NCBI GenBank assembly: GCA_023512835.1
Contig: CM042085.1
Coordinates: 37,588,324-37,652,323, forward strand
Direction: 5' to 3'
DNA from: Taxillus chinensis
Taxonomy: Eukaryota > Streptophyta > Magnoliopsida > Santalales > Loranthaceae
DNA: 64,000 nt
The stretch's first letter is position 1, and every line of letters starts with the position of its first letter. A model generated the notes under the pieces. That model was given only the letters and a program-made list of their open reading frames with translations. It did not search any database and was not told the DNA's origin. The translations under genes were made by a program, and so were the position numbers. Of this stretch, positions 10,062 through 37,513 are shown one piece after another.

Positions 10062-10114
10062 ATGGCGCCCAAGACATCTCTTTACTGGCGTTAATCCCTG
10101 AATCGGGTCGATTG
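10062..10114 (+). pseudogene. Copia A ORF3, first codons, cut by Copia B
   Basis: ATG at 10062 begins MAPKTSLYW, matching MASQALYGV of the Copia B ORF3. Copia B inserted at 10115; the frame resumes after the duplicated gattg at 33296-33300 with the LSPILRHGF/PPAWFWDLRPLLE region. Confidence 0.75.
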
Positions 10115-10429
10115 TGTTGGATCAAACCGAGAATTTGGATAATGCGGAACAAACCCTATGTAATTTGACTCGAGATGTTTCATGTTTACCATTAAGTCTG
10201 TGCAGATGAGTTAACTCTAAATCCGGACCTACTCATGTGAGGACAAAGCAAAGGACAGGATACATAATCCTGATCCGGATCATCATGAGTGTCGTCATTC
10301 ACTTGGTATATAACCAAGTCATCATCCGGAGTAAGGACCCTTCATGCTGATTAAACACTTGATAACACGACTAGGAACCCGCGTCTAACACTCAACTAGA
10401 TTATGTCAATTAATGCGGCGTAAGTTCCT

Positions 10430-10790
10430 GAGTCTACATCTTGCACGGAGTAAAAGAGACTTGTGAGAGAGAAAGAATCGAAGTTGCCACTCCAACCGGA
10501 CTAAGGAAAAGAAGACACGGACGAAGAAATCCGAGTCTGTCATTCGAGTGGAGTAAGGGCAACTGTTGCGGAGTAAGGACATCAAATGCGGAATAAGGAA
10601 TCCAAACCATTACTCATGTGGAGTAAAGAAGCGCTGATGCGGAGTAAGCTCTCTGAACCACTACTCATGCGGAGTAAGGAAGTGCTGACACAAAATAAGG
10701 ATTCTAGGACTTCATTCATATGGAGTAAGCAATCACTGATACGGAGTAAGGATCCGAGCTTCGTTCATGCGGAGTAAGGAACCTTGCAAC
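10430..10790 (+). repeat. CGGAGTAAG degenerate tandem array in the Copia B 5' LTR U3
   Basis: About a dozen variants of TGCGGAGTAAGGA occur with spacings of roughly 15-40 bases, some with G-to-A or C-to-A changes (CGGAATAAGG, CAAAATAAGG). The array sits 300-600 bp upstream of the TATA box, the usual place of U3 enhancers. The 3' LTR copy is 32290-32655 and a longer relative is in the Copia A LTR (36420-36870). Confidence 0.85.
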
Positions 10791-11086
10791 GGACCAAGAA
10801 GACGCCGCTTCATCTCTCCAAGCCGCAATTAATGCTAGCGACTCACTACGTCCCGATGTAAGACAAACTCATTGAATACCTAAATTGTCTGACACGTGGA
10901 ACACACGGAGATGTGGACGCAGTCTCAAATGCAATTGGAATCAAGCAAAGAATTCATTACAACTTATGCTTCCAATATTTTGAGCTCCACATCCGCAACA
11001 ATTAAAGCTTCAGCATTTTCCGATGAAGAACTTCAATGCACCACACTGCTTGGAAAATGCAGTTCCAAGATATATTTCTAGGATGT

Positions 11087-11100
11087 CTATATATACGCCT
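11087..11100 (+). promoter_or_regulatory. TATA box of the Copia B 5' LTR
   Basis: TCTATATATACGCC, repeated at 32958-32971 in the 3' LTR. It lies about 170 bp before the AATAAA signal, a normal U3/R layout. Confidence 0.7.
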
Positions 11101-11421
11101 GAAGCAATGTAAATAAGGATGCGCGTGCTTACTTGTACTTATACACTCATAAGCGTATATCTTGTAAAGAGCCAAACACAGAGATTCACTGCCAAGTGTG
11201 TGTAACTATAACACAGTGTTGTGCTGTAATCAGCTAAAACACTGTTTTGCTTTGTTGTAATTATCTTCAGATAATAAAGTAACATACTTCCACTACCTGG
11301 TTAATCTTCCGCACTGATTTTATCCATTTAACTAGAGTGAGTGTCTAAGCCATTAAGAGAGAATTTTTTTTTTTAAAGAGCCTATTCACCCCCCCCCTTT
11401 ATGCTCTCCGGGACCAACAAG

Positions 11422-18258: not shown

Positions 18259-18261
18259 ATA

Positions 18262-18276: not shown

Positions 18277-18666
18277 TCTAGTTGGCCTAGGGTAGTGGGC
18301 GGACTTGGTTATCTTGAGTCCTTTGGAGGAGCCTGGAGGGACATGCCTGATCAACATGGTCCTCTTTGAGCCTCCAAGGTGTACTTGGGGTAGTCCGGTC
18401 TTGTAGTAGGATTTGCATGCATTGGCATTAGGGCACTAGTTGCATTTCTTTGTGAATGTATGCTAAACTGTGGATAAAATCATATGATTAAGTGAAATGT
18501 GCAACTCGATTTGTTTGGCAATGTGTCTTGAATCGTGCAATGTGATTGATGCAATGTATGTGTGTAACATCACGTGATAGTGGAATTGATCGGTGGGGGT
18601 AGAGGTAGTGACGCGATAGATTATAAAATTGTTTTGACGTTGTGCTTCTTACTTCGTGTAGTAAGA

Positions 18667-19830: not shown

Positions 19831-19862
19831 GTTTCGTGCTCCGGTGAGAGACCAGCTCGTCG

Positions 19863-21660
19863 GTGGCAGCCCGGCCAAGCGGGATCCGGTCGGACCCGAC
19901 CTCGGGGGAGGCCGGAGCGGCAGCGACCGAGGCCGGAGGCAACCTTAGCGGGAAGCGTCCGGTGAGTGAGCCGACAAGTGGCACGGGCCAAGGAAGGGTG
20001 TTTGCGCTAGAGGCGACGTACCAGGAGGAGGCTGAGCTACCACCCCCACCAGCTGAGGGTGGAGCAGGACCATCGGTGGTTAGAGGTACCCTCTTGATCT
20101 CCCGTACCTTAGCTTCTGTACTTTTCGATACGGGTGCATCGTGTTCGTTTGTTGCTGAGCTTGTCATAGACGGCTTGGGGTTAGCCTGTGTGGAGGCCGC
20201 GAGGCCCCTAGTTGTAGAGTCTCCGGTAGGAGGCATGATTGAGGTCCGGCGAGTTTGCCGTGGACGTGTGCTAACCATAGGAGAGGTGGAGGCTGCGTTT
20301 TGACTTGCATGTGATGCCTTTGAGGGCGTTTGACCTGATCTTGGGTATGGACCGGCTTATGGCTTTCCAGGCCAAGATAGATTGTTATCGGCGGCGTGTG
20401 TCCTTTGTGACACCTGCGGGGACCTCTTGCACCCTGCGGGGGGAGTGGGATTGTGAGGCGAGTCGGGCTGGGCCAGGTGTTGGACCGGTGGGGTGCCATT
20501 ACCCACAGGTTGGCAGCCCTGACCTTTGCCTGAGGAGGGTAAGGTGGAAAAGAGGGTGTGGCCCGTGTTGTGGACCAATTTCAGGATGTTTTTCTGAGCG
20601 GTTGAGGAGTTTGCCACCTAAGAGGAGTGTGGAGTTCACCATCGAGTTGGTGCCGGGGACAGGTCCAATTTCCCAAGTAGCGTATCGTATGGGGCCAGCC
20701 CGAGCCGAGGGAGCTTCGAGAGGCAAATTGAGGAGTTGGTGGGCCAGGGGTATATCGGACCAAGTACCTCACCTTGGGGTGCTCCGGTGCTCTTTGCTAA
20801 GAAGGCCGATGGCACGCCTCGTCTCTGCATCGACTACGGGAAGGCGAATTCGGTGGCGTGAAGAACAAGTACCCGTTGCCTCGGATAGATGACCTGTTTG
20901 ACCAATTGAGTGGGGCCCGGTGGTTTTCCAAGATAGATTTACGGTCGGGGTATCACCAGCTCGGGGTTAGGGAGGAGGACATCCCTAAGACGGCTTTCGG
21001 TGCGGTATGGGCATTATGAGTGGGTAGTGATGCCTTTCGGGCTCACTAATGCGCCAGGCGGTGTTCATGCATTTGATGAACCAAGTCTTTGCCCCATACT
21101 TAGACTCGTTCGTGGTGGTGTTTATCGACGACATCTTGGTGTATTCCAAGACCGAGAGGGAGCACGTGGAGCACTTGGCAACAAGTGTTGCAAACCTTGA
21201 GGGACCAGCAATTGTTTGCTAAGTTTAGCAAGTGTGAGTTTTGGCTGCAGGAGGTTCACTTTCTTGGCCATGTGGTGTCACTGAGGGGGTTAGGGTGGAC
21301 CCGGCCAAGATTGAGGCCGTGGCATCGTGGGCAAGGCCAACCAACGTTTTTGAGATCCGTAGTTTTCTTGGCTTGGCGGGGTACTATCGTCGTTTTGTAG
21401 AGGGGTTCTCCCGTTTGGCGGCGCCTATGACAGCGTTGACTCGGAAGGGCGTGAAGTTTGAGTGGACGGACAAGTGCCGGCCGGCGTTTGAGACTCTCAA
21501 AACCCGTTTGACCACACCTGTGTTGAGGTTGCCTAGGGAGGATATTCCGTATGAGGTGTCTTGTGATGCGTCCAGGGGTTGGTTTGGGGTGTGTGCTTAT
21601 GCGGGGGCACAGTGTGGTAGCTTATGGGTCGAGGCAGGTGAAGCCTCATGAGCGAATTAT
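19863..21660 (+). pseudogene. Tekay element protease and reverse transcriptase, broken
   Basis: Protease is seen as VLFDTGASCSFVAELVIDGL (about 20120-20180), with the DTGA active site, and RAFDLILGMDRL near 20320. RT follows with [20 protein letters not shown] (20630-20690), [13 protein letters not shown] (about 20925-20965), [18 protein letters not shown] (21000-21053) and the catalytic FIDDILVYS (about 21120-21150). The connection and the start of RNase H ([19 protein letters not shown], about 21361-21420; [10 protein letters not shown] at 21560) are in one open frame 21241-21651. Frameshifts lie near 20305, 20700, 20850, 21055 and 21240. Confidence 0.88.
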
Positions 21661-23488
21661 CCTACTCATGACCTTGAGTTAGGCTGCTATCATCTTCGCC
21701 CGAAGAGTTGGCAGCACTACCTCTTGGGGGGAAAAGTTTGTGGTGTTCTCGGATCACAAGAGCCTTCGAGACATCTTTACTCGGAAGGACTTGAATTTGA
21801 GGCAAAGGAGATGGGTGGAGTATTTGCGGACCTTTGATTTTACTCTTGCCTATACCCCGGGCAAGGGTAATGTTGTGGCTGATGCATTGAGCGAAAAAGG
21901 GAAAAGCTGAGGTGGCCGTGAGGGAGTGGAAGGCGATGGAGCAATTGGCGACGTTGCGGCTGCGGCTTGTTGTTCGTGATGGTGGGACGGTCCTGCGTCC
22001 TTTGGTGGTAGTGCCTGAGTTGTACCGGCGCGTCCGGGAGGAACAGCTGGGTGACATTGAGTGTGAGGTTCTCCGTGCCCGTATTGAGGCTGGGGAGCTA
22101 TCCGGGGGACTGGACGGAGGGTCCTGAGCATGAGTTGTCATTTCGGGGGCGGTTGGTAGTAGCTTCTTCCCTCGGGGATGAGGTGATGAGGGAGTTTCAC
22201 CAATCTAGGGTTCTTGTGCATCCAGGGGGTACGAAGATGTACCATGCGCTTCGCAGACATTTTTGGTGGCCTGGGATGAAACGCGATGTGGCTGCCTTTG
22301 TTTCGCGGTGCCTCACGTGTCGGCAGGTGAAGGGCTGAGCATCGGCGGCCGGCGGGGCATGTTACGGCCCTTGCCCATAGCGGAGTGGAAGTGGGACCAT
22401 ATCGCGATGGACTTTGTGGTCGGTCTTCCACCCACCACCTGGGAGGAAGGACATGATTTGGGTGATTGTGGATCGACTCACAAAGTCGGCCCATTTTCTT
22501 GCTTTGTTCGCGAGCGGGACTCCATTGGGACTTTGAGTCATTGTACATGAACGAGATTGTGAGACCGCATGGGGTACCATCATCGGTTGTCTCCGACCGG
22601 GATTCGAGGTTCGCTTCCCGTTTCGGGGCCGGTTTGCGGGAGGCTATGGGAACCAAGCTTCACTTGAGTACAGCCTTTCACCCTGAGACGGACGGTCGGG
22701 CGAGCGGACGAATCCAGACCATGGAGGACATGTTACGGGCCTGTGTGTTAGATTTCGGGGGTTCGTGGGCAACTCACCTTCCTTTGGTGGAGTTTGCCTA
22801 CAACAACGCCTATCAGGCATCCATTGGGATGGCTCCTTTTGAGGCGTTGTACGGACGGCCGTGTCGATCACCCTTGTGTTGGGCCGAGGTAGGAGAGGCA
22901 GCCCTCTTGGGGCCACGGTTGGTTCAAGAGGCTACGAGAAGGTCAAGTTGATTCGTCGGCGTTTGTTGTCGGCTCGAGTCGGCGAGAAATCTTATGCGGA
23001 TCAGCGGCGGCGACCTTTGGAGTTTTCTCGTTGGTGATCATGTGTTCCTTCGTGTCTCTCCACGCCGTGGACATCGACGGTTTGGGCGAGGTTCCAAGCT
23101 ATCTCCGCGGTTTATTGGCCCTTTTGAGATTCCGGATCGTGTAGGACCTGTAGCCTACCGGTTAGCGTTACCACCGCGGGTGAGTCGAGTGCACAACGTG
23201 TTTCACGTGTCCCGGTTGAGGAAGTATCACCCTGACCCCACTCATGTGATTGATTGGGGGACGTTGGACATTGAGGATGACATGTCCGTCATTGAGGCCC
23301 CTATCCGTCTCCTAGATCGGCAAGAGAAACTTTTGCGTGGTCGTGCTATTCCTTTGGTTCGCGTGCTGTGGCAGCACCGTGGCATTGAGGAGGAGACATG
23401 GGAACGGGAGTCCGTGATGCGGGAGCAGCACCCAGACTTGTTCGAGGGAGGTGGCTGTTGGCCAAGGGATAGTGATGTTTCCTTGTGA
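21661..23488 (+). pseudogene. Tekay element RNase H end, integrase and chromodomain
   Basis: RNase H ends with FSDHKSLRDIFTRKDLNLRQ (21747-21805) and YTPGKGNVVADALS (21851-21891). The integrase zinc domain HQSRVLVHPGGTKMYHALRR (about 22200-22259) and CLTCRQVKG gives H, H, C, C. The core has DFVVGLPP, VVSDRDSRFAS (about 22590) and, near 22690-22715, a small indel that moves the catalytic Glu out of frame. The open frame 22994-23488 covers the integrase C-terminus ([20 protein letters not shown]) and the chromodomain (VLWQHRGIEEETWERE). Chromodomains bind modified histone tails and steer insertion to heterochromatin. Confidence 0.9.
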
Positions 23489-23756
23489 TGTGTTTTCTTG
23501 TATTAGTTGATGTATTTGTATTGTCTTTTAAAGACATGTGTTCTTATTTGTGATGTGCTTTGAAATGTGTATTCGTGCCATGTGGACATGTGTTACGTGC
23601 ATTATTGTGGTTATGGATTATGGTGGTACTTGTTATGTCTTTGTTGTCTTGTGTGTGGTGTATGATCCATTTGGGTGTGGTGGCTTGCCGGGTGGCAAAT
23701 GGGTAGTTTGTGGTTGTTTTCCTCGTATGTCATTTCTTTTCGAGGACGAAAAGTCT
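23489..23756 (+). other. 3' untranslated spacer of the Tekay element
   Basis: No gene is seen. The end (about 23738-23757) reads TTTTCGAGGACGAAAAGTC, a conserved lead-in to the polypurine tract that also occurs before the polypurine tract of Gypsy D. Confidence 0.6.
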
Positions 23757-23769
23757 TAAGGGGAGAGGA
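23757..23769 (+). other. Polypurine tract of the Tekay element
   Basis: TAAGGGGAGAGGA directly abuts the TGTAAGGACC start of the 3' LTR; it primes plus-strand DNA. Confidence 0.9.
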
Positions 23770-25493
23770 TGTAAGGACCCGTACCTTGAGTTAGTCGGTT
23801 TTGCCTCCTGAGTAGAGTTTTTCTAGATTTTGACCTAGTAGTTGGACTCCAATGAATTCACGTGCAAAAGGAAAGATGCTTAGAATGATGTCCTCTATCT
23901 ACCACGAAGTTTCGGACCAAATGGACATGTATGTGAGGTGCACGTGATATGGGTCCAATTCACGTGCAAGTGTAATTGTCTTCCAAATGATGCAAGGAGG
24001 CTAGGGGTGAAGTTTGAGAGCATTTGGAGTTCATATGGAGTTGCACGTGAATTGGGAATTCACGTGCAAATTGGCGTGCGACCATATTTTTGCATGGTTC
24101 CCTTGGTTTTGACATTCTAAGGAACTTTCTCCAAAGGACCATGTTGAAATTCTGAATATTTTGGTGTGTATGGATGTGGAAAGGTGGTAACTTGTGTGAT
24201 CAAAACTACGTCGTTTTGATCCTGGGATTCACTTAATCAAAACTACGTCGTTTTGATGTGAATGGTGTCTATATAAGGAGGGCTTGAGTTTGAGTTAGGG
24301 TTCTTGTGTTCCTTTGCTTGCAGTGCTTTGCGAGAGAGAGAGAGAGCTAGAGAGAGAGAGGGAAGGGGAGTTCGTGGTTGCTTGCCGGAGCATCTTGCGT
24401 GGGGAGGACGGCGTTTGGCGCGGGAGCAAGGAAGATCTGCTTTAAGGTAGGGGTTCTGTTCTTCCCAAACCCTCCTGTCCTAGGGTCCTAGGGCAGATTC
24501 TGGGCTGTATCTGTTTATATATATATATGTAAATTCATATAGGTGTGATCTCCTATATGAATGTTGGCCTTCAGTGGCATTTTGGTGTGGTTCTGTGATC
24601 TATATGCTATATGTTTGATGAAAAGCCTGTGTGAATATAGTTATGTGTATATGCCGCCAAGTGTTTGAAATTATGCCTGTGAGGCCGTGCATGTTATGTG
24701 TTTGTGGAAATGCCTGTGTGGGTGGGTTTGTGAGCTTGTGGATATATGCATGCTAAGTGTTCGAGGTTATTCTGTGTGACTAAGCATACTTAGTGTTTGA
24801 TGTTATGCCTGTATGGCCATGTGTCTTGCGTGTTTGCTTGTACACCCGGTGGGTGTGGAAGCCCGGGACTGTTTTGTGGAACCCGGTGGGTTGTGGAAGC
24901 CCGGGGCTGTTTTGTGGAACCCGGTGGCTGTGGAAGCCCGGGATCTGTTTTGTGGAAACCCGGTGGGCGTGGAAGCCAGGGACTGTTCTTGAAACCCGGT
25001 GGGCTGTGGAAGCCGGGAGTGTTTATGTACTAGCTCATGCATGATTTGTGTTTCTTTGTTATAGCTTGTAACTATACCTGGTGGGATAATTGTATCACGA
25101 CACGGCACTTGTACACAAGGCATGTAGATGTTAGGTGCATGGGATGGGTTGGGGAGACATGATCCCTCCTGAATGTGGTTGCTCACCCCTCCTACCATGT
25201 TGTTTTCTTTTCGGGAACCTACGGGCGTTAGGTGGGACCCCAAGGTGGAAGACCTTATTTATTTAATTTGTTTATGTTATTTTTATTATGAGAATCGATG
25301 TAACCCCAAATGGGGAAAGGATTTTGTTGTAATAAACCTGGATTGGATTGCTTTTAATGAATATTACTTTCTTGAATGTTGTGGATGTTTAAAATGTTAA
25401 ATTCTTGTTTTGTATCCTACCCCTTTGCCCTCCGTGTGGGTAAAAGGGGAGTCACGTACCGGTTTCCTCGGGTTGGAAATCCGGGGCGTGACA
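23770..25493 (+). repeat. 3' LTR of the Tekay element
   Basis: Near-identical to 16542-18258, 7 bp longer mainly through small indels in the GA repeat and minisatellite. Ends GGGGCGTGACA, then cttcc. Confidence 0.96.
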
Positions 25494-25498
25494 CTTCC

Positions 25499-27364
25499 AC
25501 ATAACTCCGGATATATTCCTTCGGATATTCAAAATATCGGAGTACCTTCCAGTCCATCCGGACCAGTTGATACGGAAATAAACAGTAATGGAGAACCTCA
25601 AAATACTCCAGAACCTGTTAATTTGAATAACGCTGGCCCGGAAGAAGCTCAATCAGTGGACGACCAAGGGCCACCTAATCTGACAGAGCTTCAAATCATT
25701 GAGTATTCACCACCACTTGCGCAAAACTATAGGTGGACTCAAAGCCACCCTCAAGAACAAGTGATTGGTAATCCTACTGTTGGTGTTAGAACAAGAGCAT
25801 CTACCTGCCTCTACTTTTGCTTTTTGTTGAAGATAGAGCCAAAAGTGGTGGAATAAGCTCTTGAAGATTCAAATTGGATAGACGCCATGCAAGAAGAGTT
25901 AAATCAGTTCAAAAGGAATGATGTGTGGACTCTTGTACCAAGGCCAAAGTCTCAACAAGTCATTGGAGTTAAATGGGTGTTCCGGAACAAACTTGATATG
26001 GACGGAATCATAATCCGGAACAAAGCCCGACTGGTAGCCAAGGGTTATCGTCAAGAAGAAGGAATAGACTATGACGAAACTTTTGCTCCGATGCCTGACT
26101 TGAGGCAATCGAATGTTCTTGGCATACGCTTCATACGAAAACTTTAAAGTTTATCAAATGGATGTGAAGAGTGCATTTCTAAATGGAGATCTTCAAGAGG
26201 AGGTATATGTTGAACAACCTCCAGGCTTCATTGAACCAAAGGCTGGACATCTGGTCTACAAACTAAGGAAAGCCTTGTATGGATTGAAGCAAGCTCTAAG
26301 AGCCTGGTATGACACACTTTCGGAATTCTTACTCGCTCACAACTTCCAAAAAGGAAGATTGACACCACGCTATTCTTACGGAAAGAGAAGACACATACTC
26401 GATCGTACGGATCTACGTGGATGATATCATTTTCGGATCAACTAATCCGAAACTTTGTGATGAGTTCGCCAAGTTGATGATTGGAAAGTTTGAGATGAGT
26501 ATGATGAGAGAACCGTCCTACTTCCTTGGGATCAAGGTCAAACAACTAAAGGAAGGGATCTTCATCAACCAAGCTAAGTACACTCGTGACTTAATCAAGA
26601 AGTTTGGTATGGAAGGTTCATCTCCTGTCAAAACTCCAATGCCGGTCGGTGCCAAGTTAGACCCAGGATGTTGATGGCAAATCGGTGAATGTGACTGAGT
26701 ACGAGAGGGATGATTGGATCCTTGTTGTATCTTACGGCAAGTCGCCCGGACATAATGTTTGCAACTTGCATCTGCCCAAGATATCAAACGAATCCCAAAG
26801 AGTCACATATGCTTAATGTAAAACGGATATTAAGGTATCTCAAAGGGACGATGAATTTGGGACTCCTGGTACCCAAAAGAGTCCAACTTCGCCTTATCCG
26901 GATATTCGATGCTGATTTTTCCGGGTGTCGCATAGACAGGGAAAAGCACCAGTGGTACATGCCAATTCCTTGGAAATAGATTGATCTCTTGGTTCGGTAG
27001 AACGAGAATTCCGTATCAACCTCTCTGCTTGAAGCGGAATATATAGTCGCGGGAGTTGCTGCGCCGAGGCTTCTCCTGGATGCAAAGTCAACTTCCTGAC
27101 TACGGCTTCAACATGACATCTGTTCCACTCTACCGTGACAACACCAAGTTCTATTGCTATCGTTAATAATCCCGTCATGCATCCAAAGAAAAAACATATT
27201 GAGGTCGGGCATCATTTCATTCGCGATCATGTTCTTAAAAAGCACATATCCCTAGAACATGTTGCTCCGAAGATCAACTGGCGGATATACTTACAAAGCC
27301 CCTACCTGATGTAAGATTTTCTGAACTTCTTCTTAAATTAGGTATGCTTGACTTTTCTGCATAG
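25499..27364 (+). pseudogene. Copia B integrase tail, reverse transcriptase and RNase H
   Basis: After the Tekay insertion the variable integrase-RT linker runs to about 25850. RT then reads [20 protein letters not shown] (25887-25946), [32 protein letters not shown] (about 26020-26079), YQMDVKSAFLNGDLQEEVYV (26152-26211), LYGLKQALRAWYD, and IYVDDIIFGS (about 26408-26437) as the catalytic motif. Shifts lie near 26100, 26350, 26670 and 26890. RNase H retains TASRPDIMFATCIC (about 26730-26775) and ends LPDVRFSELLLKLGML with TAG at 27362-27364, the same pol end as Copia A. Confidence 0.9.
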
Positions 27365-28980
27365 CTTCTCACCTGTTATCCATCAGTAGTTATTTTCACA
27401 ACATGCATTGTTGTACTTCATGGTTAGTGATAGATACTGAACTTCATGTTTAACTATCTTACTTTAGTCGTGTAAATGTTACGATGTTTCTCACTAAGTT
27501 CATAATGGGAGGATGCTTGCTTATCCCGGGCCGACAGTGAATCAAGCAAACATAATTAAATTTAAATGACACAAATCCTATTCTGATGTCATGAATTCAA
27601 CTCCATCATCCATCACATGTCTTATAATTTCATGACTAACTGAAATATCTAAGATGCATGGTTGAGGAATGATTTGGGATAGCTCGGACTGGAAGTGGAA
27701 ATTCACTGTCTGCTGATCAGCTGCTTGAGTGGAGTAAATGAAGGATAGGCAGCAGTTTCTCTCGTTTCATCATAAAACAGGAAACGTCTTAACAAGTTCT
27801 AAAAGTCCTCAGGGGAGAAATTGCTCTCTCTATTATCTAGTAATACCCCCGGATTCATGTTTCATGACCTCTTTCCTGGGTGTCTATCTGAGGGGAGTCA
27901 TCCTCGAGAAGATCGCATCAAAATGATTCGCTGATCTCGGGGGGAGAGAATACTTCATTGAATCTTAAGTAAGGCCCCCTGTTTCAGCAAAAGGCATGAC
28001 TACAGGGCGAGAGAATGCTTATTATTAAGTAATGCCTCTCTGATATGTCTCGGATGTTCCTCCTTATAACACTCACTCATAAAGCTGATTGGATTTGCAC
28101 TGTTGAATCGGAATTGCGAATTGCTTGGCTGTTATCTTCCTCTTCCTAGCATTTTAGGCATGACAGTCGGTTGTAACATCATACATCATGTGCTCTTCCT
28201 TCCATTTTCACTCATACATTCTCTGATGGATGAAGTCATATAAATCAAATTGATCTTTGCTCTCATTTTCAGTATGAAAGATTGGCTATGTTGACCTATT
28301 GGATTTATGTGTTAATTATCCCACACATACATTGATTTCAGTATGATAGCTTTAACTTCTTATGCATAAGTTCTGTTTCTTCTTAGTACGGATTGTGTGT
28401 TATACTCTTATATTGTTTATCCGGACTAACCCGAACCTGACGAGACTTGCTCTTCAAAGCATCTATTTGTTAAGTCACGGGTTTAGATTCTCTTTGCATT
28501 TCATTGCTCTATTTTATCACATGTCTCGGATTTCGAGGTGTCGTGGTACTTCATACTCCCTCGACATCAAGACCGCGAAGGAATCATCTCTTTTCAACAC
28601 CGTTATTATCGATACGATTAGTCGGTCTCATCCGAATGATCTTTATATGGATTATCCTGCTCCAGGATGAAAGTCGGTTTATTTCCTCCTGACTCTTGGA
28701 ATTCTCAATTCGCGATAAACCAAGTAATTCTCTTACATCGCTTATTTTTGAGGAGGGATAATGATGGTTCATTTAATGCACGCATCGAGCCCGATACTTA
28801 TCTTTTCAAAAATCCGGAAGTATGCCTACAAATTGTCATCTTTGAATGGTTAGCACAGCTGCCACGTCATAAGTCTATTCGACGGCGCTAATCCATCACT
28901 TCTAATGACATAAGGAAGTCGAGTGGCTAACTATTCATTTCGCTTAAACTCGAGACCCACTCGCTTCCACGGAAAGGATC
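27365..28980 (+). other. Pol-to-ORF3 spacer of Copia B with polypurine modules
   Basis: No recognisable gene in 1.6 kb. Three to four tandem modules of about 90-100 bp (about 27805-28055) contain GGGGAGAAATTGC, GGGGGGAGAGAATAC and GGCGAGAGAATGC, each followed after 15-25 bases by AGTAATACCCCC, AAGTAAGGCCCCC or AGTAATGCCTC and often ATGTCTCGG. The purine and pyrimidine boxes could pair. The TCCGGA-type motifs and the stretch before the TATA box also match the Copia A spacer. Confidence 0.65.
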
Positions 28981-29103
28981 CTATTTATACCGCACTATCG
29001 GCGTCGGCCGAGGTTATCACTACCAACTCTCAAAACCCTAAACCCTCGCCGCACCTATTCCGGCAAAGCTCTTCTCTCCTTCTCCCTTACTCTTTCACTC
29101 TCA
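28981..29103 (+). promoter_or_regulatory. Putative internal promoter and leader of Copia B ORF3
   Basis: CTATTTATACC (28981-28991) is a TATA box; AAAACCCTAAACCCT (29032-29046) is a telo-box, a motif common in promoters of plant translation and cell-cycle genes; a pyrimidine-rich leader (CTCTTCTCTCCTTCTCCC) leads to the ATG at 29104. The layout matches 9945-10061 in Copia A. Function is inferred. Confidence 0.55.
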
Positions 29104-31829
29104 ATGGCATCCCAAGCTCTCTATGGTGTTGTTCCTAGCCATCTTGTCGATTGGTCCGGAATCTCTGATCCTCCAGCATGGCTCCATGAGGTTCGCCAGC
29201 TACTCGAGCATAGCAACCTTTTCGCGTTTGTTTCTTCCCCGGCCGATCTTCTAGTGTCGGATGTCCTGGCCTTCCATCATCACTCCACCTCCACTGAGGA
29301 GTTTATCCTTTCTGTGGTTCGAGGGGAAACTATCAAGATCACACCTCAGGTGATCCGGGATGTTTTCAACCTTCCGCCCGGCGATGACATCCGACCAAAC
29401 GCTGCTGCCATGGCCGCTTCCATGGGGTGTCCTAATAAGGTGAAGGAGTACAAAATGAAGTCTTTCCATGGTCCTCACCGCTTATGGCCACCATACTCAT
29501 CCGGTGTCTTTTGGATCGCTCCACGGCTCTCGACTCGGTTCCGTACGATCTCCTACTGGCGATGTATGCGGTTTTTGAGTCACTGCCACTTGACTGGGGC
29601 AACTTTCTCTTCTGGGTGTTGTGGAATGGGAAATGGAACTCGTCTTTTGGACGGATTCTGTCCCAAATCTTCCGGCATCTTCACCCCGCGCACTTCCAGG
29701 GTGAACCGGTGATTCCCTTCCCGGCGTCCTACTACTTCCGCCATCTTCTGCCGACGGGACCCTCACCGTTCGCCGCCCTCCGGTCTCCCGTGCCCTTGCT
29801 GTCGCTTCAGAACAGCAAGCGAGTTTTGTTGGTGAACCTGTTGCCAGCTCGGGCCATGAAGTTAGTTCTGCTCTCTGGTCAGTTCACTCCCGTATCCGGT
29901 CTGTTGCTGCTCGGCACTCTCCCTTGATTCGGCGCCACGGGCGTTCGGGCTGACCTGTCTACTGCTGCAAGGCCCTCTCAGCCGCCCTTCCATGAGGTTA
30001 CCACATCCGCCTCTCTTGCTGATGTCCCTGCCTCTCTTCCTGCCGTTGTTCTTTCTTCTTGCTCCTAATCTTTGTTCGATGCTCCCGCACCCATCTCTCC
30101 GGTCCAGGCGGGCCGTTCTGCTATTCTTCCGGACCTTCCATCTTCTCTCTGGAAGCCTCTCCCGCTCACTCTCCGGCCCTCCGGGACTATCTCGACCATC
30201 TCTCCACCGACATACTAAATGACTGGCGGGCTGCGCTTTCGGCCTCGCCATTACTCCGACATCCCCAGAACCTACCCTCCGGGTGTTTTATGCTCAACAC
30301 ACCCAGACCCCGGAGGAAATGCTTACTTGGAACTCCTACCACGGCTTTGTGATGCCGTCGCTCCTCAAGGTCGCACCTCCTGCTCGTCGCCTCTTCCGGT
30401 CATGCCCATGACGCACGGACACCTGCCCTGCCGAGGCTGGCCCCTCTTATCCTGCGGATATCCCTATCATTGACCTCTCCGGTCAAAGTGGATCTGCCGC
30501 ACCTCCTCCTCTGTTGTTCTTCTTTGTCTAACCACCGTCCTCTCCTGCTTGCCGCCGACTCGCCCTGCCCACACCTGCCCCTCTTCATGCGGGCGAGTCT
30601 TCGAAAGCTCCCGCCTTTGGTCTTGGGCGCGCCGCTTTTGCCACGATTTTATCTGAGGCTGCTTTCTCCGCCCAACTCGATCGCCTTGCTGAGGACAGTC
30701 GTCTTCAGACCCAGGCCCTTTCCGACCATGTCCGGGCCATGGGTGCCAAGCTTCTTTCTGCCTTCTCCTCTACCTCTCTCTCCATGGATCAGAAGCTAGA
30801 GTGGCTTGCCGCGTCTTTCTCTGACTTGTCCACCTCCATTGCGGACTTAACGCAAGTCATGGCCAGTCCCTCCTGCACTCGCCGATCTGCCAAACCGGGG
30901 GAGAAATCATCTGATCCTTCCCCTCTTTCCACTCTTGGCGTTGCCTCTCGCAAACGGTCCGCACCGCTCTTCCTCCGGGCCTTCCAGTGCCTAAACGCAG
31001 CCGTTTCTCCACTGGCCAGACCAGCTCTCCCACTCCTGCTATTCCATCTGGTGCCATCTCCTTCCTCCCATCATACGCGGAATTGCATCCGGATGATATG
31101 ATGGGAGCATTCTTGCTGCGGCCAAGGCCTATGCCTTCTCCACTGCCAAGCGCCGATGTGTGTCTGCCTCGTCCCCCTTCGAACCTCAAGACATCCAGAC
31201 CATACTGTCTGAGGAGGGACAATTTTTCACTGACGACATCGACAACTATGCTCTGGTGGTAAAGATGGAGTTGAGGCTATTCCCCTCTTTACTTGAGGAA
31301 GGCCTTGATTTTGATGTTCTTCCTTCTTTGGGTTGAAAACCGGTTTCTGCTTGTGGACGTTATTCTATCTTACATCAATGGTACAGGAGAGAACAGCCGA
31401 CCATGGACCTCTATGTCCATCGTTTTCATCCCCTTCTGGGTCGACTCCCCACATTTCATGCTGACTGTTTTCCTGATCAAAGAGAAGAAAATCTTGCTTC
31501 TAGATTCTCATCAGGTTGTTAACCGCCCGATTAGAAAGAATCAGGTGAGGAGTCTCGTTCGAACCTTGTCAGATGCAATCAGACAGAGTTCTCTCTATGA
31601 AGACTTGAATCTACCGCCTCTTGGTCAGGATGAAGTACTCATGGGGACGATCTGGAACAAGAAGAATGTGCCCCAGCAACCCGATGGAAATAGTTGTGGA
31701 GCCTTTGTCTGCTACTTCTTGAAATCTGTTATCTCCTTCGATGATGACTGGAAAAATATCATCGAGTTCTCCAAGAAGCAGAACAATGGCACTATGAGAG
31801 CATGCGACAAGGATGATCTTCAAATATAG
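29104..31829 (+). pseudogene. Copia B ORF3: plant-transposon-domain-like N-terminus fused to a Ulp1-like (C48) protease, frameshifted
   Basis: ATG at 29104 gives MASQALYGVVPSHLVDW, supported by the matching start in Copia A. The N-terminal part (29104 to about 29930, one shift near 29480) reads PPAWLHEVRQLLEHSNL, SVVRGETIKITPQVIRDVF and LDSVPYDLLLAMYAVFESLP. This resembles the putative plant transposon protein domain of many plant mobile-element proteins, from the pattern VRG-x-hydrophobic-x-hydrophobic; that assignment is moderate. A Pro/Ala/Ser-rich linker (about 29950-30640) is shifted several times. A helical region (about 30700-30870, MDQKLEWLAASFSDLSTSI) follows, then the C48 domain (31115-31829). 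The position before the 3' LTR is where some Sireviruses carry an env-like gene, but no signal peptide or membrane segment in the intact frame supports an envelope. In an intact relative it could process or deconjugate SUMO-like proteins. Confidence 0.75.
31293..31829 (+). other. Ulp1-like peptidase C48 domain, intact catalytic set (within Copia B ORF3)
   Basis: This 178-codon open frame has PHFMLTVFLI (His54), ILLLDSHQ (Asp71) and VPQQPDGNSCGAFVCYFLK (Gln129, Cys135), counting from the first Met-aligned codon at 31293. His-to-Asp is 17 residues and Gln-to-Cys is 6, both equal to yeast Ulp1 (His514, Asp531, Gln574, Cys580); Asp-to-Cys is 64, longer than Ulp1. Ulp1 has HW where this has HF. 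The Copia A copy has the same His-17-Asp spacing. The domain begins upstream of the first Met, around 31115, in another frame (ILSEEGQFFTDDIDNYAL), so the real start is not here. Confidence 0.82.
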
Positions 31830-31981
31830 TAAGCCGTATGTACCATAATTTATATCTCGTACTAAGGCTTAATGTATTTCTGTTGTAACCGAGTGGAAGC
31901 TGTTCTCTTTAATCCTTACCTCCGTGTTATTTCTTGCTACCTTACCGGATCAGATTACAAAGGGTTTGGCATATCCATATT
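31830..31981 (+). other. Short 3' spacer of Copia B
   Basis: No gene. The end (ATCAGATTACAAAGGGTTTG, GGCATATCCATA) is almost identical to the matching place in Copia A (about 36074-36104), showing conservation just before the polypurine tract. Confidence 0.6.
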
Positions 31982-31989
31982 GGGGGAGA
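31982..31989 (+). other. Polypurine tract of Copia B
   Basis: GGGGGAGA followed by C and the TGTTGG start of the 3' LTR; Copia A has the identical tract. Confidence 0.88.
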
Positions 31990-31990
31990 C

Positions 31991-33295
31991 TGTTGGATCA
32001 AACCGAGAATTTGGATAATGCAGAACAAACCCTATGTAATTTGACTCGAGATGTTTCATGTTTACCATTAAGTCTGTGCAGATGAGTTAACTCTAAATCC
32101 GGACCTACTCATGTGAGGACAAAGCAAAGGACAGGATACATAATCCTGATCCGGATCATCATGAGTGTCGTCATTCACTTCGTATATAACCAAGTCATCA
32201 TCCGGAGTAAGGACCCTTCATGCTGATTAAACACTTGATAAAACGACTAGGAACCCGCATCTAACACTCAACTAGATTATGTCAATTAATGCGGAGTAAG
32301 TTCCTGAGTCTACATCTTGTACGGAGTAAAAGAGACTTGTGAGAGAGAAAGAATCGAAGTTGCCACTCCACCGGACTAAGGAAAAGAAGACACGAACGAA
32401 GAAATCCGAGTCTGTCATTCGAGCGGAGTAAGGGCAACTATTGTGGAGTAAGGACATCAAATGCGGAATAAGGAATCCAAACCATTACTCATGCGGAGTA
32501 AGGAAGCGCCGATGCGGAGTAAGCTCTCGAACCACTACTCATGCGGAGTAAGGAAGCGCCGACACGGAATATGGATTCCAGGACTTCATTCATACGGAGT
32601 AAGCAATCAACGATACGGAGTAAGGATCCGAGCTTCGTTCATGCGGACTAAGGAACCTTGCAATGGACCAAGAAGACGGCGCTTCATCTCTCCAAGCCGC
32701 AATTAATGCTAGCGACTCGCTACGTCCCGATGTAAGACAAACTCATTGAATACCTAAATTGTCGACACGTGGAACACACGGAGATGTGGACACAGTCTCA
32801 AATGCAATTGGAATCAAGCAAAGAATTCATTACAACTTATGCTTCCAATATTTCAAGCTCCACATCCGCAGCAGTTAAAGCTTTAGCATTTTCCGATGAA
32901 GAACTTCAATGCACCACACTGCTCGGAAAATGCAGTTCCAAGATAGATTTCTAGGATGTCTATATATACACCTGAAGTAATGTAAATAAGGATGTGTGTG
33001 CTTACTTGTACTTATACACTCATAAGCGTATATCTTGTAAAGAGCCAAACACAAAGATTCACTGCCAAGTGTGTGTAACTATAACGAGTGTTGTGTTGTA
33101 ATCGGCTAAAACGTTGTTTCGCTTTGTTGTAATTATCTTCGAGATAATAAAGCAACATACTTCCACTACCTGGTTAATCTTCCGCACTGATTTTATCCGT
33201 TTAACCAGAGTGAGTGTCTAAGGCATTAAGAGAGAGAAAGAATTTTTAAAGAGCCTATTCACCCCCCCCCCCCTTTAGGCTCTCCGGGACCAACA
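31991..33295 (+). repeat. 3' LTR of Copia B
   Basis: 1305 bp, same length as the 5' LTR and differing by scattered single changes. Carries the CGGAGTAAG array (32290-32655), TATA box near 32958, AATAAA near 33147 and ends GGGACCAACA. Confidence 0.96.
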
Positions 33296-35954
33296 GATTG
33301 ACCCACTATCTCCAATCCTCCGGCATGGTTTTGGGACCTACGCCCACTCCTGGAAGCCTCCCACATTCTGAACCTGGTCTCAAATCCTATCAATCTCCTT
33401 ATCAACGACATTCCGAGTTCTACCAGGCGGGTCCGCCGCACCACCGATTCCATCCTCTCCAACGTCCGGGGTGAATCCATAGTCATCACCCCCAACGTCC
33501 TCCGTGCCACTCTCAATCTACCCCCCTAGTGAACCTCGGCGCCCCCTGCCGAGAATCGATGGCGGCTTCCATGGGCTACATATATAAGGGGAAGGAATAC
33601 AAGGTGAAGTCCTTCCAAGGTTGCTACCGGTGTATGGCAACCATTACGAGCCGGTGTCTCGGCTCGCACAACCGCTCTGGACTCCGTTCCGTATGACCTC
33701 CTCTTGGCCATGTACGAGTCTTTGAGGGTCTCCCGATGGACTGGGGGACATTCTTGTTCCAATTCTTGAAGAACGGCCCCAAGAACCAATCTTTCGGGCG
33801 GATTCTCGGCATCGTATTCGAGCATCTCGCGTCTGTCCCATTTCAACGGACATGGCACTATCCCTTTCCCCCAAGCTTACTATCTCCGCTATCTTACGCC
33901 TAATGGGAACATGACGGCATGCCGGCCTTCTCTCGCTCTCCGCCTCCTTCCCGCCTTGAAACAAAGGGAAGTTCGGTTGGTGACCCAGCCGACGACCATG
34001 CCCCCGAAGTCGGCTCCTGCTCACTAGTCCTCTCGGATTCGGTCCGTAGTTGCACCCTCCATCACCTGAGCCTCCCAGCACAGCGTTCGCGCTGATCCAT
34101 CCGAGGTTGCAAGGGCCTCTCAGCTAAGTCCTCATCCGGCTGATTCTCCAGCGCCTTCTGCCGCTAATGCCCCCGCACCCAACTCACCCGTTGTTGCTGC
34201 CGTTGTTGATGCTGCCGTTGCTACGGAGGTGGCTGATGCCCCGAAATCTCCTTCGGAAGCTCCCTTGCCTCCCTTTCCTCAACCTCGAGATTACCTTGAC
34301 CATTTCTTCGCCAACACGTTAACGGACCTATGGTTCCGTTTTAGCCTAGCCTGTACCGCCACCATCCCTCACAACGACCTCCGGGTGTACTATACTCGCC
34401 ACACACACTCCTTGGAGGACATGATCATCTAGAACTTGGATCATGGCTTCCTTACGCCAGCCTCCATTCTGGATGTTCCATTCTCTGTTACCTCTGAACC
34501 CGCCCATGACGCACGGGTTCCTTCTCCTGCTGAGGCCCGGCCCACTTCTGCTGCTGACATCCCCATTGTTAACCTCTCCGGTCAAAGTGGTTCTCCTGCT
34601 CCGGATGCCTCCACCGCTCTGGATATCCCATCTGCTGCTGCCGTGATGCTCCCTCTACTCCTCCCCGACTCCTCTATCCAGCGCACACCGCACCTATTCT
34701 TACGGGGGAGTCCTCCAAAGCCCCGAGTTGGCGCTTGGACGTGCCTCATTTGGCACGGTTCACTCCGATGTTGTGCTTTCCGCTCAGATGGACCGCCACA
34801 CCTAAGCCTAGATCGCCCAAATTTCCGCCATCGCCGCCAAGGTTGATGCTCTAGGCGCCCAACTCCTCTCCGCCCTGACCGATTCCTCAACTTCCATTGA
34901 GTAGAAGATGGATCTCATCGCCTCGTCTGTCCATTCACTGTCTACATCTTTCGCGGACTTGGCGCACACGATGGCTCGTCCTCCTCTTGCTCCTTGGCGA
35001 TCTGCCAAATCAGGGGAGAAAGTGTCATCTGATCCTCATTTACCTTCCTCAGCTCATGCTGAAAAGTGGCCCACATTTACATCTTCACTGCTTCCGGGAG
35101 TTACTATTCCCAAATGCAGCCGTTTCTCTCAGCCCAACTCCTCCAGTGGAGCTCCTCCTTCCACCTCTCGATCAACGGCTGATACCTTCCTCCCATCATA
35201 CGCGGATCGTGATCCACTTGATGCGAGATGGAAGTGTTTTTCTTGAAATGACTAAGTATTCCGCGTCCAATGCCGAGCGAAGATGTCTTTCTAACTTATA
35301 CCCCTTCTCTCCTAAAGATATTCTGACTCTATGTTCTGAGAAGGGCCTTTTCACCACAGAAGACATAGAAAACTTCTCTCGGGCAGTTAAGGTGGAGATG
35401 AGGTTGTTTCCATCTATTTACAAGGAGGAACACTTGTTTGACATCTTGCCTTGTTGGTCTGAAGGTTATCTTCCAGATATAGCCTTCATTCGGACCTTCA
35501 TCGACGGAACTACTGAGGACAGCAAACCTTGGAAAAATCAGTCAACTGTCCTCATTCCATACCGGATTTTGATGCCGCACTTCATGCTGGTTGCTTTCAT
35601 GATTCACTCCAAGCAGTTGATCTTGATTGATTCTCATAAGGTTATGGATAACAACATTAGAAAGAATCAATGGGAACCTCTGCATCTTCGACTGACCGAA
35701 GCAATAAAGTAATCCGGACTCTATGAAGAAATGGACATGACTCCCTTGGCTCCAAATGAAAAGCTAAAGGTTGCGGTCCGAAACAAGAAACAAGTGCCAC
35801 AATAGCCTGATGGAGATAGCTGCAGAGCTTTTGTTTGCTTCTTCATCAAATCGCTTATAAAGGTGGATAAAAGCTGGAACAGCATCCGCAATTATACAAT
35901 GGAGCGGACAATAGAGCTTAGAGAGAAGGCGATGACGATGATCTTCAAGTATAG
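33296..35954 (+). pseudogene. Copia A ORF3, main part, with decayed Ulp1-like protease
   Basis: This continues the ORF begun at 10062. PPAWFWDLRPLLEASHI (about 33320-33370) matches the N-terminal domain of Copia B ORF3. Next come the PPMDWGTFLF-like part (about 33730-33760), an Ala/Pro/Ser-rich linker better preserved than in Copia B (34100-34300; open 34229-34432, 34436-34846) with RDYLDHFFANTLTDL, and a helical part (MDLIASSVHSLSTSFADLAH, 34908-34967). The protease is open in 35240-35712 with IENFSRAVKVEMRLFPS, PHFMLVAF (His) and LILIDSHK (Asp). A stop at 35710-35712 follows; then VPQ-stop-PDGDSCRAFVC keeps the Cys while the Gln codon before it is TAG (35803-35805). The frame ends DDLQV-TAG at 35954, like DDLQI in Copia B. 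Confidence 0.78.
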
Positions 35955-36107
35955 TAAGCCTTATGTACCTTAGTGTAAAATTTGTATAAAGGCTGAATTG
36001 TACTATGTTGTTGTTTAATGAAAATAAAAGTTATTTCTATCATGTATACTATCTTTGTGCTTCGCTTACCAAATCAGATTACAAAGGGTTTTGGCATATC
36101 CATAATT

Positions 36108-36116: not shown

Positions 36117-37513
36117 TGTTGCATCAAGCCCAGAATTTGGATGATGCGGATAAAATCCTATGTAATTTGATCTGAGACTTTGATTGTTTTATCTTAAGTT
36201 GTTGCAAAAGATATGATCTTAACCCAGACCTACACTCGTGAGAGCAAAGCTAAGGACAAGATATATAATCCTGATCCGAACAAGAGTGAGTGTCGTCAAA
36301 CACTTGGTAAATAACCAAGTCTCTACTTTATACAGAATAAGGATCATTCGTGTAGACTAATCACTTAAACCTATGGAGTAAGGAAACTGCGCCTAACACC
36401 TTAAACGGACTAAGTCAAATAGATGCGGAGTAAGAATCCTAGTCTATAAGTAGCACAGAGTAAGAGATAGTCTTTGCAGAGTTAAAAAGCTAAGTCTTCC
36501 CCTCAAGTGGATTAAGGAAACTAGACACAGAATAAGGATCCGAGTCTTTCATAGATGTAGAGTAAGGAAGTACTTGTACGGAATAAGGACCCGAGTCCTT
36601 TGTTCGTACGGAGTAAGGAAACTAGATGCGGAGTAAGGAATCCGAACCAATTACTCATGCGGAGTAAGGATGTGCTGATACGAAGTAAGCCATCCGGTCC
36701 TTTCAACTCATGCGGAGTAAGGAAGTGCTGATACGGAGTAAGCTCTCCAGACTTCTCGTTCATACGGAGTAAGGAAGCGCGGACACAGAAACCAAACTGA
36801 CATGGAGTAAGCAACAAATGTTACGGAGTAAGGATCCGAGCCTCATTAACACGGAGTAAGGAACTTAACGTCGGATTAAGTGGATGTTGCTTCAACTTAT
36901 TTCTTTGCATTCAACGTCACCAGCTTGTTGTGTCCTGATGTAAGACAAACTCATCGATAATCTAAAGCATCTTACACATAGATTGCACGGATATGTGGAC
37001 ACAACTTTAACTGCATTTGGGAACTCACAAGACACTTATGTTTTATAAAACCAAGACCTTGAGCTCCACATCCGCAGCATTCAAGGCAGAGAGAATTCCG
37101 AGGAACAATTAATGCTACACATAGTCTAAAAGAACAAGTTTCAAGATTGTCTCTCAAGGATGTTTCTATATATATTGTAACACTTGTACATTAAAAAAAA
37201 TTGACATAGTTAATCGTTCGTGAGTTTGATATAAGTGTGTATGTACAAGAGCTAATTGAGATCATAGAGGCTAGTGTGTGAGTCTTTTGTAAACGAGTGT
37301 AAGAGAGTTGTAAGAGTAGATCGAAAAGATTTACAAGCTTTAATCGCTTCTATTTTGTTGTATTTATCGGTTAATAATAAAAAAAATACTTCCACTACTT
37401 GGTTATCTTCGCATTGATTATATCTTTTAACCGGTTAAGTGTTGTGTCAAAGAGTAATAAAAGAGTTTCGAGAAGAGCCAATTCACCCCCCTCTAGGCTC
37501 CCAGGGACCAACA
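36117..37513 (+). repeat. 3' LTR of Copia A
   Basis: 1397 bp from TGTTGCATCAAGCCC to GGGACCAACA. Its last 360 bp match the window start. Layout is as in Copia B, but the U3 has diverged. TATA box TTCTATATATATTG lies near 37164-37178. Confidence 0.92.
36420..36870 (+). repeat. CGGAGTAAG tandem array in the Copia A 3' LTR
   Basis: About 15 variants of ACGGAGTAAGGA or TGCGGAGTAAGGA at 20-40-bp spacing, more than the dozen in Copia B. The repeat unit is shared although the flanking U3 has diverged. Confidence 0.85.

What the first reader, a model, noticed from the sequence alone, without database searches (positions are those of the whole stretch)
29104..31829. A Copia retrotransposon family carries a Ulp1-like SUMO-protease domain in an extra ORF
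Seen: downstream of RNase H and before the 3' LTR, Copia B has an ORF whose C-terminus has PHFMLTVF, ILLLDSH and QQPDGNSCGAFVC, with His-17-Asp and Gln-6-Cys spacing. Copia A, a separate insertion of a relative, has the same ORF (10062-10114 plus 33296-35954), so it belongs to the family and is not a chance capture in one copy. Known: Ulp1/C48 proteases mature and remove SUMO; plant Mutator-like elements and some other DNA transposons have captured such domains. I know of no well-described Copia family with one. Inference: the element may protect its Gag, integrase or host chromatin targets from SUMO-linked silencing, or process its own polyprotein.
Basis: partly seen in the sequence, partly recalled or inferred. 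Interest (0 to 1): 0.9.

Follow-up and report, generated by a model that had tools for sequence, protein, structure and literature searches.

The report
Copia retrotransposon with Ulp1-like protease gene
A plant jumping-gene family with many copies carries an extra gene that ends in a protease of the kind that strips SUMO-like tags off proteins, and natural selection has kept that gene working, so a puzzling 'extra gene' of plant retrotransposons now has a testable enzymatic role.

Summary
Window 31293-31829 matches Pfam Peptidase_C48 (E=1.4e-10) with His-17-Asp and Gln-6-Cys spacing; Copia A carries a relative of the same ORF. Both window copies are broken. In the window's own 521 Mb genome 150 of 150 scored candidates matched the B domain at 82-99% identity, the window included. 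ORF3 is open over 911 codons in two fetched copies. It has a weak Transposase_32-like N-terminus, a low-complexity middle and a C-terminal C48 domain. Purifying selection: between-subfamily dN/dS is 0.09-0.15 (N-terminus), 0.26-0.42 (middle), 0.18-0.31 (C48); RT/RNase H 0.04-0.08. In 29 loci picked by non-coding DNA, C48 variants seen once give omega 1.00, shared ones 0.46-0.47. Best reading: the 3' extra gene of a SIRE-like Copia family encodes a cysteine isopeptidase for SUMO or another ubiquitin-like tag, plausibly against silencing. Substrate and activity are untested; Phe replaces the Trp expected after the catalytic His. I saw no LTR precedent in partial literature listings; MULE, CACTA, Ginger and non-LTR precedents exist.

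The parts
10115..11419 (+). 5' LTR of Copia B
   Evidence: self-BLAST 95.0% to 31991-33295; K2P 0.0454
31991..33295 (+). 3' LTR of Copia B, with repeated CGGARTAAG units
10110..10114 (+). target-site duplication GATTG (left copy)
   Evidence: right copy 33296-33300
33296..33300 (+). target-site duplication GATTG (right copy)
25493..27360 (+). reverse transcriptase / RNase H region of Copia B (broken); right of the nested Gypsy-type element 16542-25493
   Evidence: RVT_2 E=1.3e-16 and 3.1e-12; 25493-31976 is about 93% identical to L039, L040 and L042
28982..28989 (+). candidate TATA box of ORF3 (TATTTATA), 122 bp before the ATG
   Evidence: TATA-like string at -115 to -123 in 9 of 9 copies whose ATG was located, three subfamilies; such strings are common in the linker
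29104..31848 (+). ORF3 relic of Copia B, broken by frameshifts and stops
   Evidence: counterpart open for 911 codons in L039 and L041
29104..29480 (+). Transposase_32-like N-terminal region of ORF3 (end approximate)
   Evidence: no family in the window copy; open copies E=0.035 to 8.4e-5, all under the cut-off; not seen in the L078 piece
31374..31739 (+). Peptidase_C48 match in ORF3 of Copia B
   Evidence: Pfam E=1.4e-10
31452..31454 (+). catalytic His codon
   Evidence: position 54 of the 31293 ORF; kept in 26 of 28 readable loci
31503..31505 (+). catalytic Asp codon
   Evidence: position 71 of the 31293 ORF; 28 of 28 readable
31677..31679 (+). oxyanion-hole Gln codon
   Evidence: sequence; 23 of 27 readable
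31695..31697 (+). catalytic Cys codon
   Evidence: sequence; 26 of 28 readable
31981..31990 (+). polypurine tract TGGGGGAG and AC before the 3' LTR
   Evidence: a GGGGGAG tract just before the LTR in 26 of 30 loci
10062..10114 (+). first part of the ORF3 relic of Copia A, up to the Copia B insertion
   Evidence: ATG located
33301..35973 (+). rest of the ORF3 relic of Copia A (broken)
   Evidence: aligned to B; C48 piece 47% identical to L039 and 73% to L075
36117..37513 (+). 3' LTR of Copia A; the end of its 5' LTR is at window 1-356
   Evidence: K2P 0.094 over 352 bp

Best explanation
This is the 3' extra gene (the place of the 'env-like' gene) of a SIRE-like Ty1/copia family with many copies. 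It encodes a protein of about 900 residues: a Transposase_32-like N-terminal domain, a Ser/Pro/Ala-rich middle with conserved basic patches, and a C-terminal C48 (Ulp1-like) cysteine protease with a conserved His-Asp-Gln-Cys set. Shown: the architecture, its place between RNase H and the PPT/3' LTR in the copies examined, its occurrence in three subfamilies, open frames in some copies, and purifying selection. Inferred: the protein may be made from its own promoter just upstream of the ATG. The N-terminus and middle bring the protease to element RNA, Gag/integrase or element chromatin, where it removes SUMO or another ubiquitin-like tag. That would weaken SUMO-dependent silencing or free element proteins for nuclear entry and integration.
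For: C48 over the curated cut-off in the window and in four B-type ORFs and, weakly and only over its end, in one C-type ORF (L075, 4.9e-5). 150 of 150 scored candidates match the B domain and 150 of 150 the A piece, the window included in both. Of 29 loci picked by the non-coding ORF3-LTR spacer, 29 have ORF3 sequence upstream (four only a short or shortened part); 20 of 27 readable keep all four residues. dN/dS between subfamilies 0.18-0.31 for C48 and 0.09-0.15 for the N-terminus. Within a subfamily, singletons are neutral (omega 1.00) but shared variants are constrained (0.46-0.47; singletons versus shared, Fisher p=0.003). RT/RNase H sequence directly upstream in 4 of 5 long stretches: L039, L040, L042, L073. 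For the silencing step: SUMO1/SUMO2 act in silencing of transposons in Arabidopsis (PMC6084981, introduction read); in yeast, tethering of Ulp1 at nuclear pores limits Ty1 transcription (PMC8585004, abstract read); Ulp1-bearing VANC (KIU) genes sit in anti-silencing VANDAL elements (PMC13317346, passages read).
Against: No activity, expression or localisation data. Phe instead of Trp after the catalytic His (28 of 28; Leu in L040). No Pfam C48 hit for the stop-free A piece or for L074, whose frame ends just before the Cys. Best PDB sequence hits are only marginal (Ulp1 1euv E=0.051), and the structure prediction failed. The SIM-like motif is weak: a match occurs in 84 of 2000 shuffles, and Thr replaces a core residue in 15 of 24 readable loci. 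In the Ty1 study Ulp1 at the pore helps to repress Ty1, so the direction of a SUMO effect is not given. L041, which lacks pol, keeps ORF3 open, so an open ORF3 alone does not show that its copy is active.
Confidence: 0.45

Rival explanations
1. The C48 domain is a second protease of the element itself: it processes Gag-Pol or ORF3, or matures the particle, without any link to SUMO.
For: Clan CE includes viral polyprotein or structural proteases (recalled, e.g. adenain). Phe after the catalytic His and the marginal PDB hits point away from close SUMO-specific enzymes. ORF3 is kept open with a gag piece in L041, where pol is missing.
Against: The Gag-Pol aspartic protease of copia elements normally does this work (recalled; not tested in this family). 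ORF3 has its own ATG and lies about 1.7 kb beyond pol.
Confidence: 0.2
2. The protease acts on a ubiquitin-like modifier other than SUMO (NEDD8 or ubiquitin), for example to stabilise element proteins.
For: The plant ULP family has a deNEDDylating relative, DEN1 (PMC6117577, passages read); PDB near-hits include ChlaDub1; Phe for Trp after His.
Against: The best PDB sequence hit, though marginal, is the SUMO protease Ulp1, and a weak SIM-like motif is present.
Confidence: 0.2
3. ORF3 is a structural or cell-to-cell (env-like) protein in which the C48 fold is a binding module and catalysis is incidental.
For: It occupies the place of the env-like gene; the N-terminus is Transposase_32-like, as in an Athila extra ORF (PMC11728184, passages read).
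Against: His, Asp, Gln and Cys are kept in 26/28, 28/28, 23/27 and 26/28 readable loci although many copies are decaying.
Confidence: 0.1
4. Passive passenger: a captured gene fragment carried along neutrally.
For: Singletons within a subfamily are neutral (omega 1.00); the middle region shows omega 0.81-1.07 for shared variants.
Against: Shared variants in C48 are constrained, and between-subfamily dN/dS is far under 1 in all three parts; open frames over 911 codons.
Confidence: 0.04

Closest known systems
SIRE/Maximus lineage (Sirevirus) of Ty1/copia with eORF-3'F (env-like)
   Same: copia RT; LTRs of 1.3 kb; long linker; sense ORF between pol and 3' LTR; CGG...CCG repeated motifs in the LTR; PPT 10 bp before the LTR
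   Different: PPT reads TGGGGGAG, not AGGGGGAG; multiple identical PPTs not seen; ORF3 carries C48. Neumann 2019 (PMC6317226, passages) finds 19 groups of SIRE eORFs with little or no mutual similarity and names no C48 domain in the passages I saw; its supplementary file was not readable here
KIU (Kaonashi) genes of VANDAL/MULE DNA transposons
   Same: transposon-borne Ulp1 domain spread over many copies; anti-silencing context (PMC13317346, PMC6117577, passages)
   Different: DNA transposon; VANC partner
Utopia and NeSL non-LTR retrotransposons with an Ulp1-like domain
   Same: a retrotransposon that encodes its own Ulp1-like cysteine protease (PMC4640811, passages)
   Different: nematode non-LTR elements; domain at the N-terminus
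Ginger1 and CACTA elements with Peptidase_C48
   Same: C48 domain at the C-terminus of the transposase (Ginger1) or in ORF2 (CACTA) (PMC2836005, PMC8978399, passages)
   Different: DNA transposons
Athila extra ORF with Transposase_32 (PF20167)
   Same: the same weak N-terminal domain in an extra ORF (PMC11728184, passages)
   Different: Gypsy element; no C48 mentioned in the passages read

Membership tests
Peptidase_C48 (Pfam PF02902) | whole-protein score over the curated cut-off (20.7 bits) | tested here: met
   41.9 bits in the window B piece; 33.8 to 49.3 bits in four B-type ORFs; 23.7 in L075; no hit for L074 or for the window A piece
Peptidase_C48 (Pfam PF02902) | catalytic His, Asp, Gln, Cys in order | tested here: met
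   all four in 20 of 27 readable loci picked by non-coding DNA; also in C-type L075 and L076
Peptidase_C48 (Pfam PF02902) | Ulp1 fold in a structure model | tested here: inconclusive
   AlphaFold2 on the window piece with 2 rows: pLDDT 45.7, pTM 0.38; no fold search made on it
SUMO-specific Ulp1/SENP enzymes | Trp right after the catalytic His (recalled) | tested here: not met
   Phe in 28 of 28 readable loci, Leu in L040; L003, another C48 group of this genome, has HW
SUMO-specific Ulp1/SENP enzymes | cleavage of SUMO | not testable with these tools
   needs enzyme assays
Ty1/copia superfamily | RVT_2 reverse transcriptase and copia gag | tested here: met
   RVT_2 in window and L040 (5.4e-74); Retrotran_gag_2 in L041 (1.8e-21)
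Sirevirus (SIRE) | PPT AGGGGGAG 10 bp before the 3' LTR, then AT/TG (PMC2829016, sections 6 and 7 read) | tested here: inconclusive
   TGGGGGAG at the right distance; AC/TG in B, AT/TG in A
[quoted passage not shown]
   only GGGGAG variants in the linkers (B: 27812, 27892, 27941; A: 8843, 8960), none identical to the terminal one; so not filed as a Sirevirus
Sirevirus (SIRE) | CGG...CCG repeated motif in the upper half of the LTR | tested here: met
   7, 9 and 10 CGGARTAAG units in three LTRs, of which 1, 3 and 3 close with CCG
Sirevirus (SIRE) | RT phylogeny within the SIRE clade | not tested
   no reference retroelement sequences on hand
KIU/VANDAL | borne by a MULE DNA transposon | tested here: not met
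   flanked by copia pol and LTRs

The most novel reading that the evidence does not exclude
The 'env-like' gene of this SIRE-like lineage is a dedicated anti-silencing enzyme: a deSUMOylase (or other de-tagging protease) with its own internal promoter, targeted by a Transposase_32-like domain to the element's RNA or chromatin. This would be an LTR-retrotransposon counterpart of the KIU/VANC anti-silencing genes, and a function for a class of extra ORFs that has had none.
Probability: 0.28. Interest if true: 0.85.

Novelty: new variant of a known kind. Interest (0 to 1): 0.62.

Why it matters
The roles of the extra ORFs of plant LTR retrotransposons are reported as controversial or unknown (PMC7264820, first of three parts read; PMC6317226, passages). 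Here one of them carries a recognisable catalytic domain under selection, with open copies in hand, so the role becomes testable by ordinary enzyme assays. It also adds an LTR lineage to MULE, CACTA, Ginger and non-LTR elements that took up Ulp1-like domains. Repeated capture across unrelated transposons suggests that SUMO or ubiquitin-like tags are a general point of conflict between hosts and transposons.

Tried and rejected
Neutral passenger: contradicted. Chance motif: contradicted by Pfam and by the genome-wide family. The first selection test (30 loci picked by C48 protein similarity, window included) was biased towards conserved C48, so it was repeated on loci picked by non-coding DNA. 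The unmasked form of that repeat gave C48 omega 1.36/0.84/0.42; stretches of rows without BLAST homology were then masked, giving 1.00/0.47/0.46. In the class of variants in 3 or more copies alone, C48 versus middle is not significant (p=0.064); for 2 or more it is p=0.030. TATA-like strings are not rare in the linker (5.46 per shuffled linker), so the internal promoter rests on position across subfamilies only.

Literature: all 10 searches used. Nine bore on precedent, and most list only part of their hits: 5 of 5 papers; 20 of 47; 10 of 10; 20 of 782; 20 of 411; 15 of 89; 20 of 45; 15 of 2196; 20 of 2940. One search was on SUMO and silencing. I saw titles and starts of abstracts, and opened 14 papers in part. 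In what I saw, none reported an LTR retrotransposon with an Ulp1/C48 ORF; subscription journals and supplements were out of reach.
Full report
Setting. Copia B has LTRs at 10115-11419 and 31991-33295 (95.0% identical; K2P 0.0454) and a GATTG target duplication. It is inserted in the third ORF of Copia A, whose 3' LTR is 36117-37513. A Gypsy-type element (LTRs 16542-18258 and 23770-25493, 97.1%; Tf2-1-like integrase SH3 domain, E=4.4e-27) is nested in Copia B. With assumed rates of 1.3e-8 or 7e-9 per site and year, B inserted roughly 1.8 or 3.2 million years ago; a 352-bp piece of the A LTRs gives 3.6 or 6.7.

The observation. The stretch 31293-31829 matches Pfam Peptidase_C48 with E=1.4e-10. 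The nearest PDB sequences are mostly clan CE enzymes but only marginal (Ulp1 1euv E=0.23 for the single sequence, 0.051 for a profile). The window copies are relics: ORF3 of B and of A run through several frames with stops. The stop-free piece of A gave no Pfam family.

The family. A search of the window's own genome with the B domain scored 150 of 7559 first-look candidates; 150 of 150 matched at 82-99% identity, on contigs C1 to C9, the window copy included. With the A piece, 150 of 7046 were scored; 150 of 150 matched at 70-100%. A third group lies at 70-72% identity to A, and 30 of its 34 listed rows have no stop in the matched stretch. These counts are lower bounds, and the candidate numbers are not copy numbers. 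In the 30 loci cut out (29 besides the window), ORF3 is followed by LTR sequence in 30 of 30, with a GGGGGAG tract just before it in 26 of 30. Five stretches longer than 6 kb were taken. L039, L040, L042 and L073 have copia RT/RNase H sequence just upstream. L041 has LTR and an open gag piece of 291 codons joined directly to the linker, so pol is missing, while ORF3 is open over 911 codons. ORF3 is also open over 911 codons in L039 and, over most of its length, in L040 and L075.

Architecture. The N-terminus matches Transposase_32 weakly: E=0.035, 0.0013, 0.0045 in three B-type ORFs, 0.00058, 8.4e-5 and 0.0015 in three C-type ORFs, all under the cut-off and at about the same place; not seen in the L078 piece or in the window copy. 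A passage in PMC11728184 reports the same domain in an Athila extra ORF. The middle is rich in Ser, Pro and Ala, with conserved basic patches. A motif like a SUMO-interacting motif, IP(I/V)(I/V)(D/N)LSGQSG, is matched in 10 of 12 pieces. Four of the 12 had been picked by that motif, so the fair count is 7 of 8. Chance gives a match in 84 of 2000 shuffles, and in the loci picked by non-coding DNA a core position is Thr in 15 of 24 readable rows; this is weak. The C-terminus is the C48 domain with conserved His, Asp, Gln and Cys. C48 is found by Pfam in four B-type ORFs and, over its end only, in L075 (4.9e-5); L074, whose frame ends just before the Cys, gave no hit. The residue after His is Phe in 28 of 28 readable rows and Leu in L040, not Trp as in Ulp1/SENP (recalled) and as in another C48 group of this genome (L003).

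Selection. Three tests. (1) Window A against B: third-position share of differences 0.46 in ORF3 (611 codons), 0.51 and 0.40 in two pol-side stretches, 0.39 in the linker and 0.37 in the LTR. The second pol-side stretch is no better than the controls, so this test alone is soft. (2) 29 loci chosen by the non-coding spacer between ORF3 and LTR (40 of 1419 candidates scored and matched; 30 cut out, one of them the window). 29 of 29 have ORF3 sequence upstream, but in L049, L059, L060 and L067 the homology is cut short and in a few others gapped. After masking, C48 variants seen once are neutral (52 synonymous, 126 nonsynonymous; omega 1.00). Those in two copies give 24 and 27 (0.47), those in three or more 25 and 28 (0.46); stop-creating changes (8, 3, 5) are counted apart. 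The middle gives 1.12, 0.81, 1.07. Singletons against shared: p=0.003 in C48, p=0.32 in the middle; C48 against middle for variants in three or more copies: p=0.064. This is what active copies under constraint plus dead copies under none would give. (3) Between subfamilies, on stop-free frames: B (L039, L041) against C (L074, L075, L076) gives dN/dS 0.19-0.23 for C48, 0.09-0.15 for the N-terminus and 0.26-0.42 for the middle; the window A piece gives 0.18 against L075 and 0.31 against L039 for C48; RT and RNase H (L040, L042 against L073) give 0.04-0.08. dS is high (1.0-3.1 in ORF3), so the ratios are rough. dS is also higher in ORF3 than in RT/RNase H (0.7-0.9), which may mean saturation, another mutation rate or recombination between lineages.

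A possible own promoter. In 9 of 9 copies whose ATG was located, from three subfamilies, a TATA-like string lies 115-123 bp before the ORF3 ATG, followed in 9 of 9 by a CCCTAAA-containing, pyrimidine-rich leader. TATA-like strings are common in this AT-rich linker (5.46 per shuffled linker) and the copies share ancestry, so this is a candidate. It is of interest because PMC2829016 (passages of its section on the envelope gene) says that an internal promoter for the Sirevirus ENV gene was hypothesised but not conclusively identified.

How it most likely works. The protein is probably a cysteine isopeptidase that the element makes beside Gag-Pol. The most economical target is the SUMO system of host silencing or of the element's own proteins. 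In Arabidopsis SUMO1 and SUMO2 act in the silencing of transposons (PMC6084981, introduction). In yeast, tethering of Ulp1 to nuclear pores restricts Ty1, itself a Copia element (PMC8585004, abstract). Ulp1-bearing KIU genes occur in VANDAL elements that escape silencing (PMC13317346, passages). None of this shows the activity of ORF3; specificity for NEDD8 or ubiquitin, or processing of element polyprotein, remains open, and the Phe after His is a reason for caution. The AlphaFold attempt on two window pieces gave a poor model (pLDDT 45.7), most likely for lack of an alignment; I did not search folds with it.

Known or new. SIRE elements carry 3' extra ORFs in 74% of cases, in 19 groups with little or no mutual similarity (PMC6317226, passages), so an extra ORF here is ordinary. 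Ulp1-like domains in transposons are known from MULEs, CACTA, Ginger and non-LTR Utopia/NeSL elements (PMC13317346, PMC6117577, PMC8978399, PMC2836005, PMC4640811, passages). The combination with a Copia LTR element did not appear in the papers listed by nine full-text searches that bore on it (only part of the hits was listed, see Tried and rejected). Annotation tables, supplements and subscription journals were out of reach. The element resembles SIRE in LTR length, linker, repeated LTR motif and extra ORF, but its PPT differs by one base and the multiple-PPT hallmark was not met, so I call it SIRE-like and do not file it as a Sirevirus.

Noticed in passing
L041 (own genome C7:56697400-56704300): A copy in which LTR and a gag piece run straight into the linker (window 12932 joined to 27920, about 8 bases shared at the joint): pol is gone, a gag piece and ORF3 are open. 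Whether this is a multicopy non-autonomous form could not be tested.
   Followed up: partly
window 28982-28989 and counterparts in A, B and C copies: TATA-like box and CCCTAAA-containing leader before the ORF3 ATG, conserved in place in 9 of 9 copies; candidate internal promoter.
   Followed up: partly
L003, L004 (own genome C2:27.77-27.79 Mb): A second, distant C48 group (28% identical to the Copia B piece), open frames of 453 and 427 codons, two copies with the same score about 19 kb apart in opposite orientation; element type unknown.
   Followed up: no
ORF3 of L039/L041 against L074-L076; RT/RNase H of L040/L042 against L073: Synonymous divergence between subfamilies is higher in ORF3 (1.0-3.1) than in RT/RNase H (0.7-0.9), which could mean exchange of ORF3 between lineages.
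   Followed up: no
window 16542-25493: Gypsy-type element nested in Copia B (LTRs 97.1% identical), related in part (71-73%) to the element between 51587 and 61282 on the other strand.
   Followed up: partly
window 44844-45042 and 49553-49756: A further short direct-repeat pair (94%) 4.7 kb apart, possibly a small LTR element.
   Followed up: no
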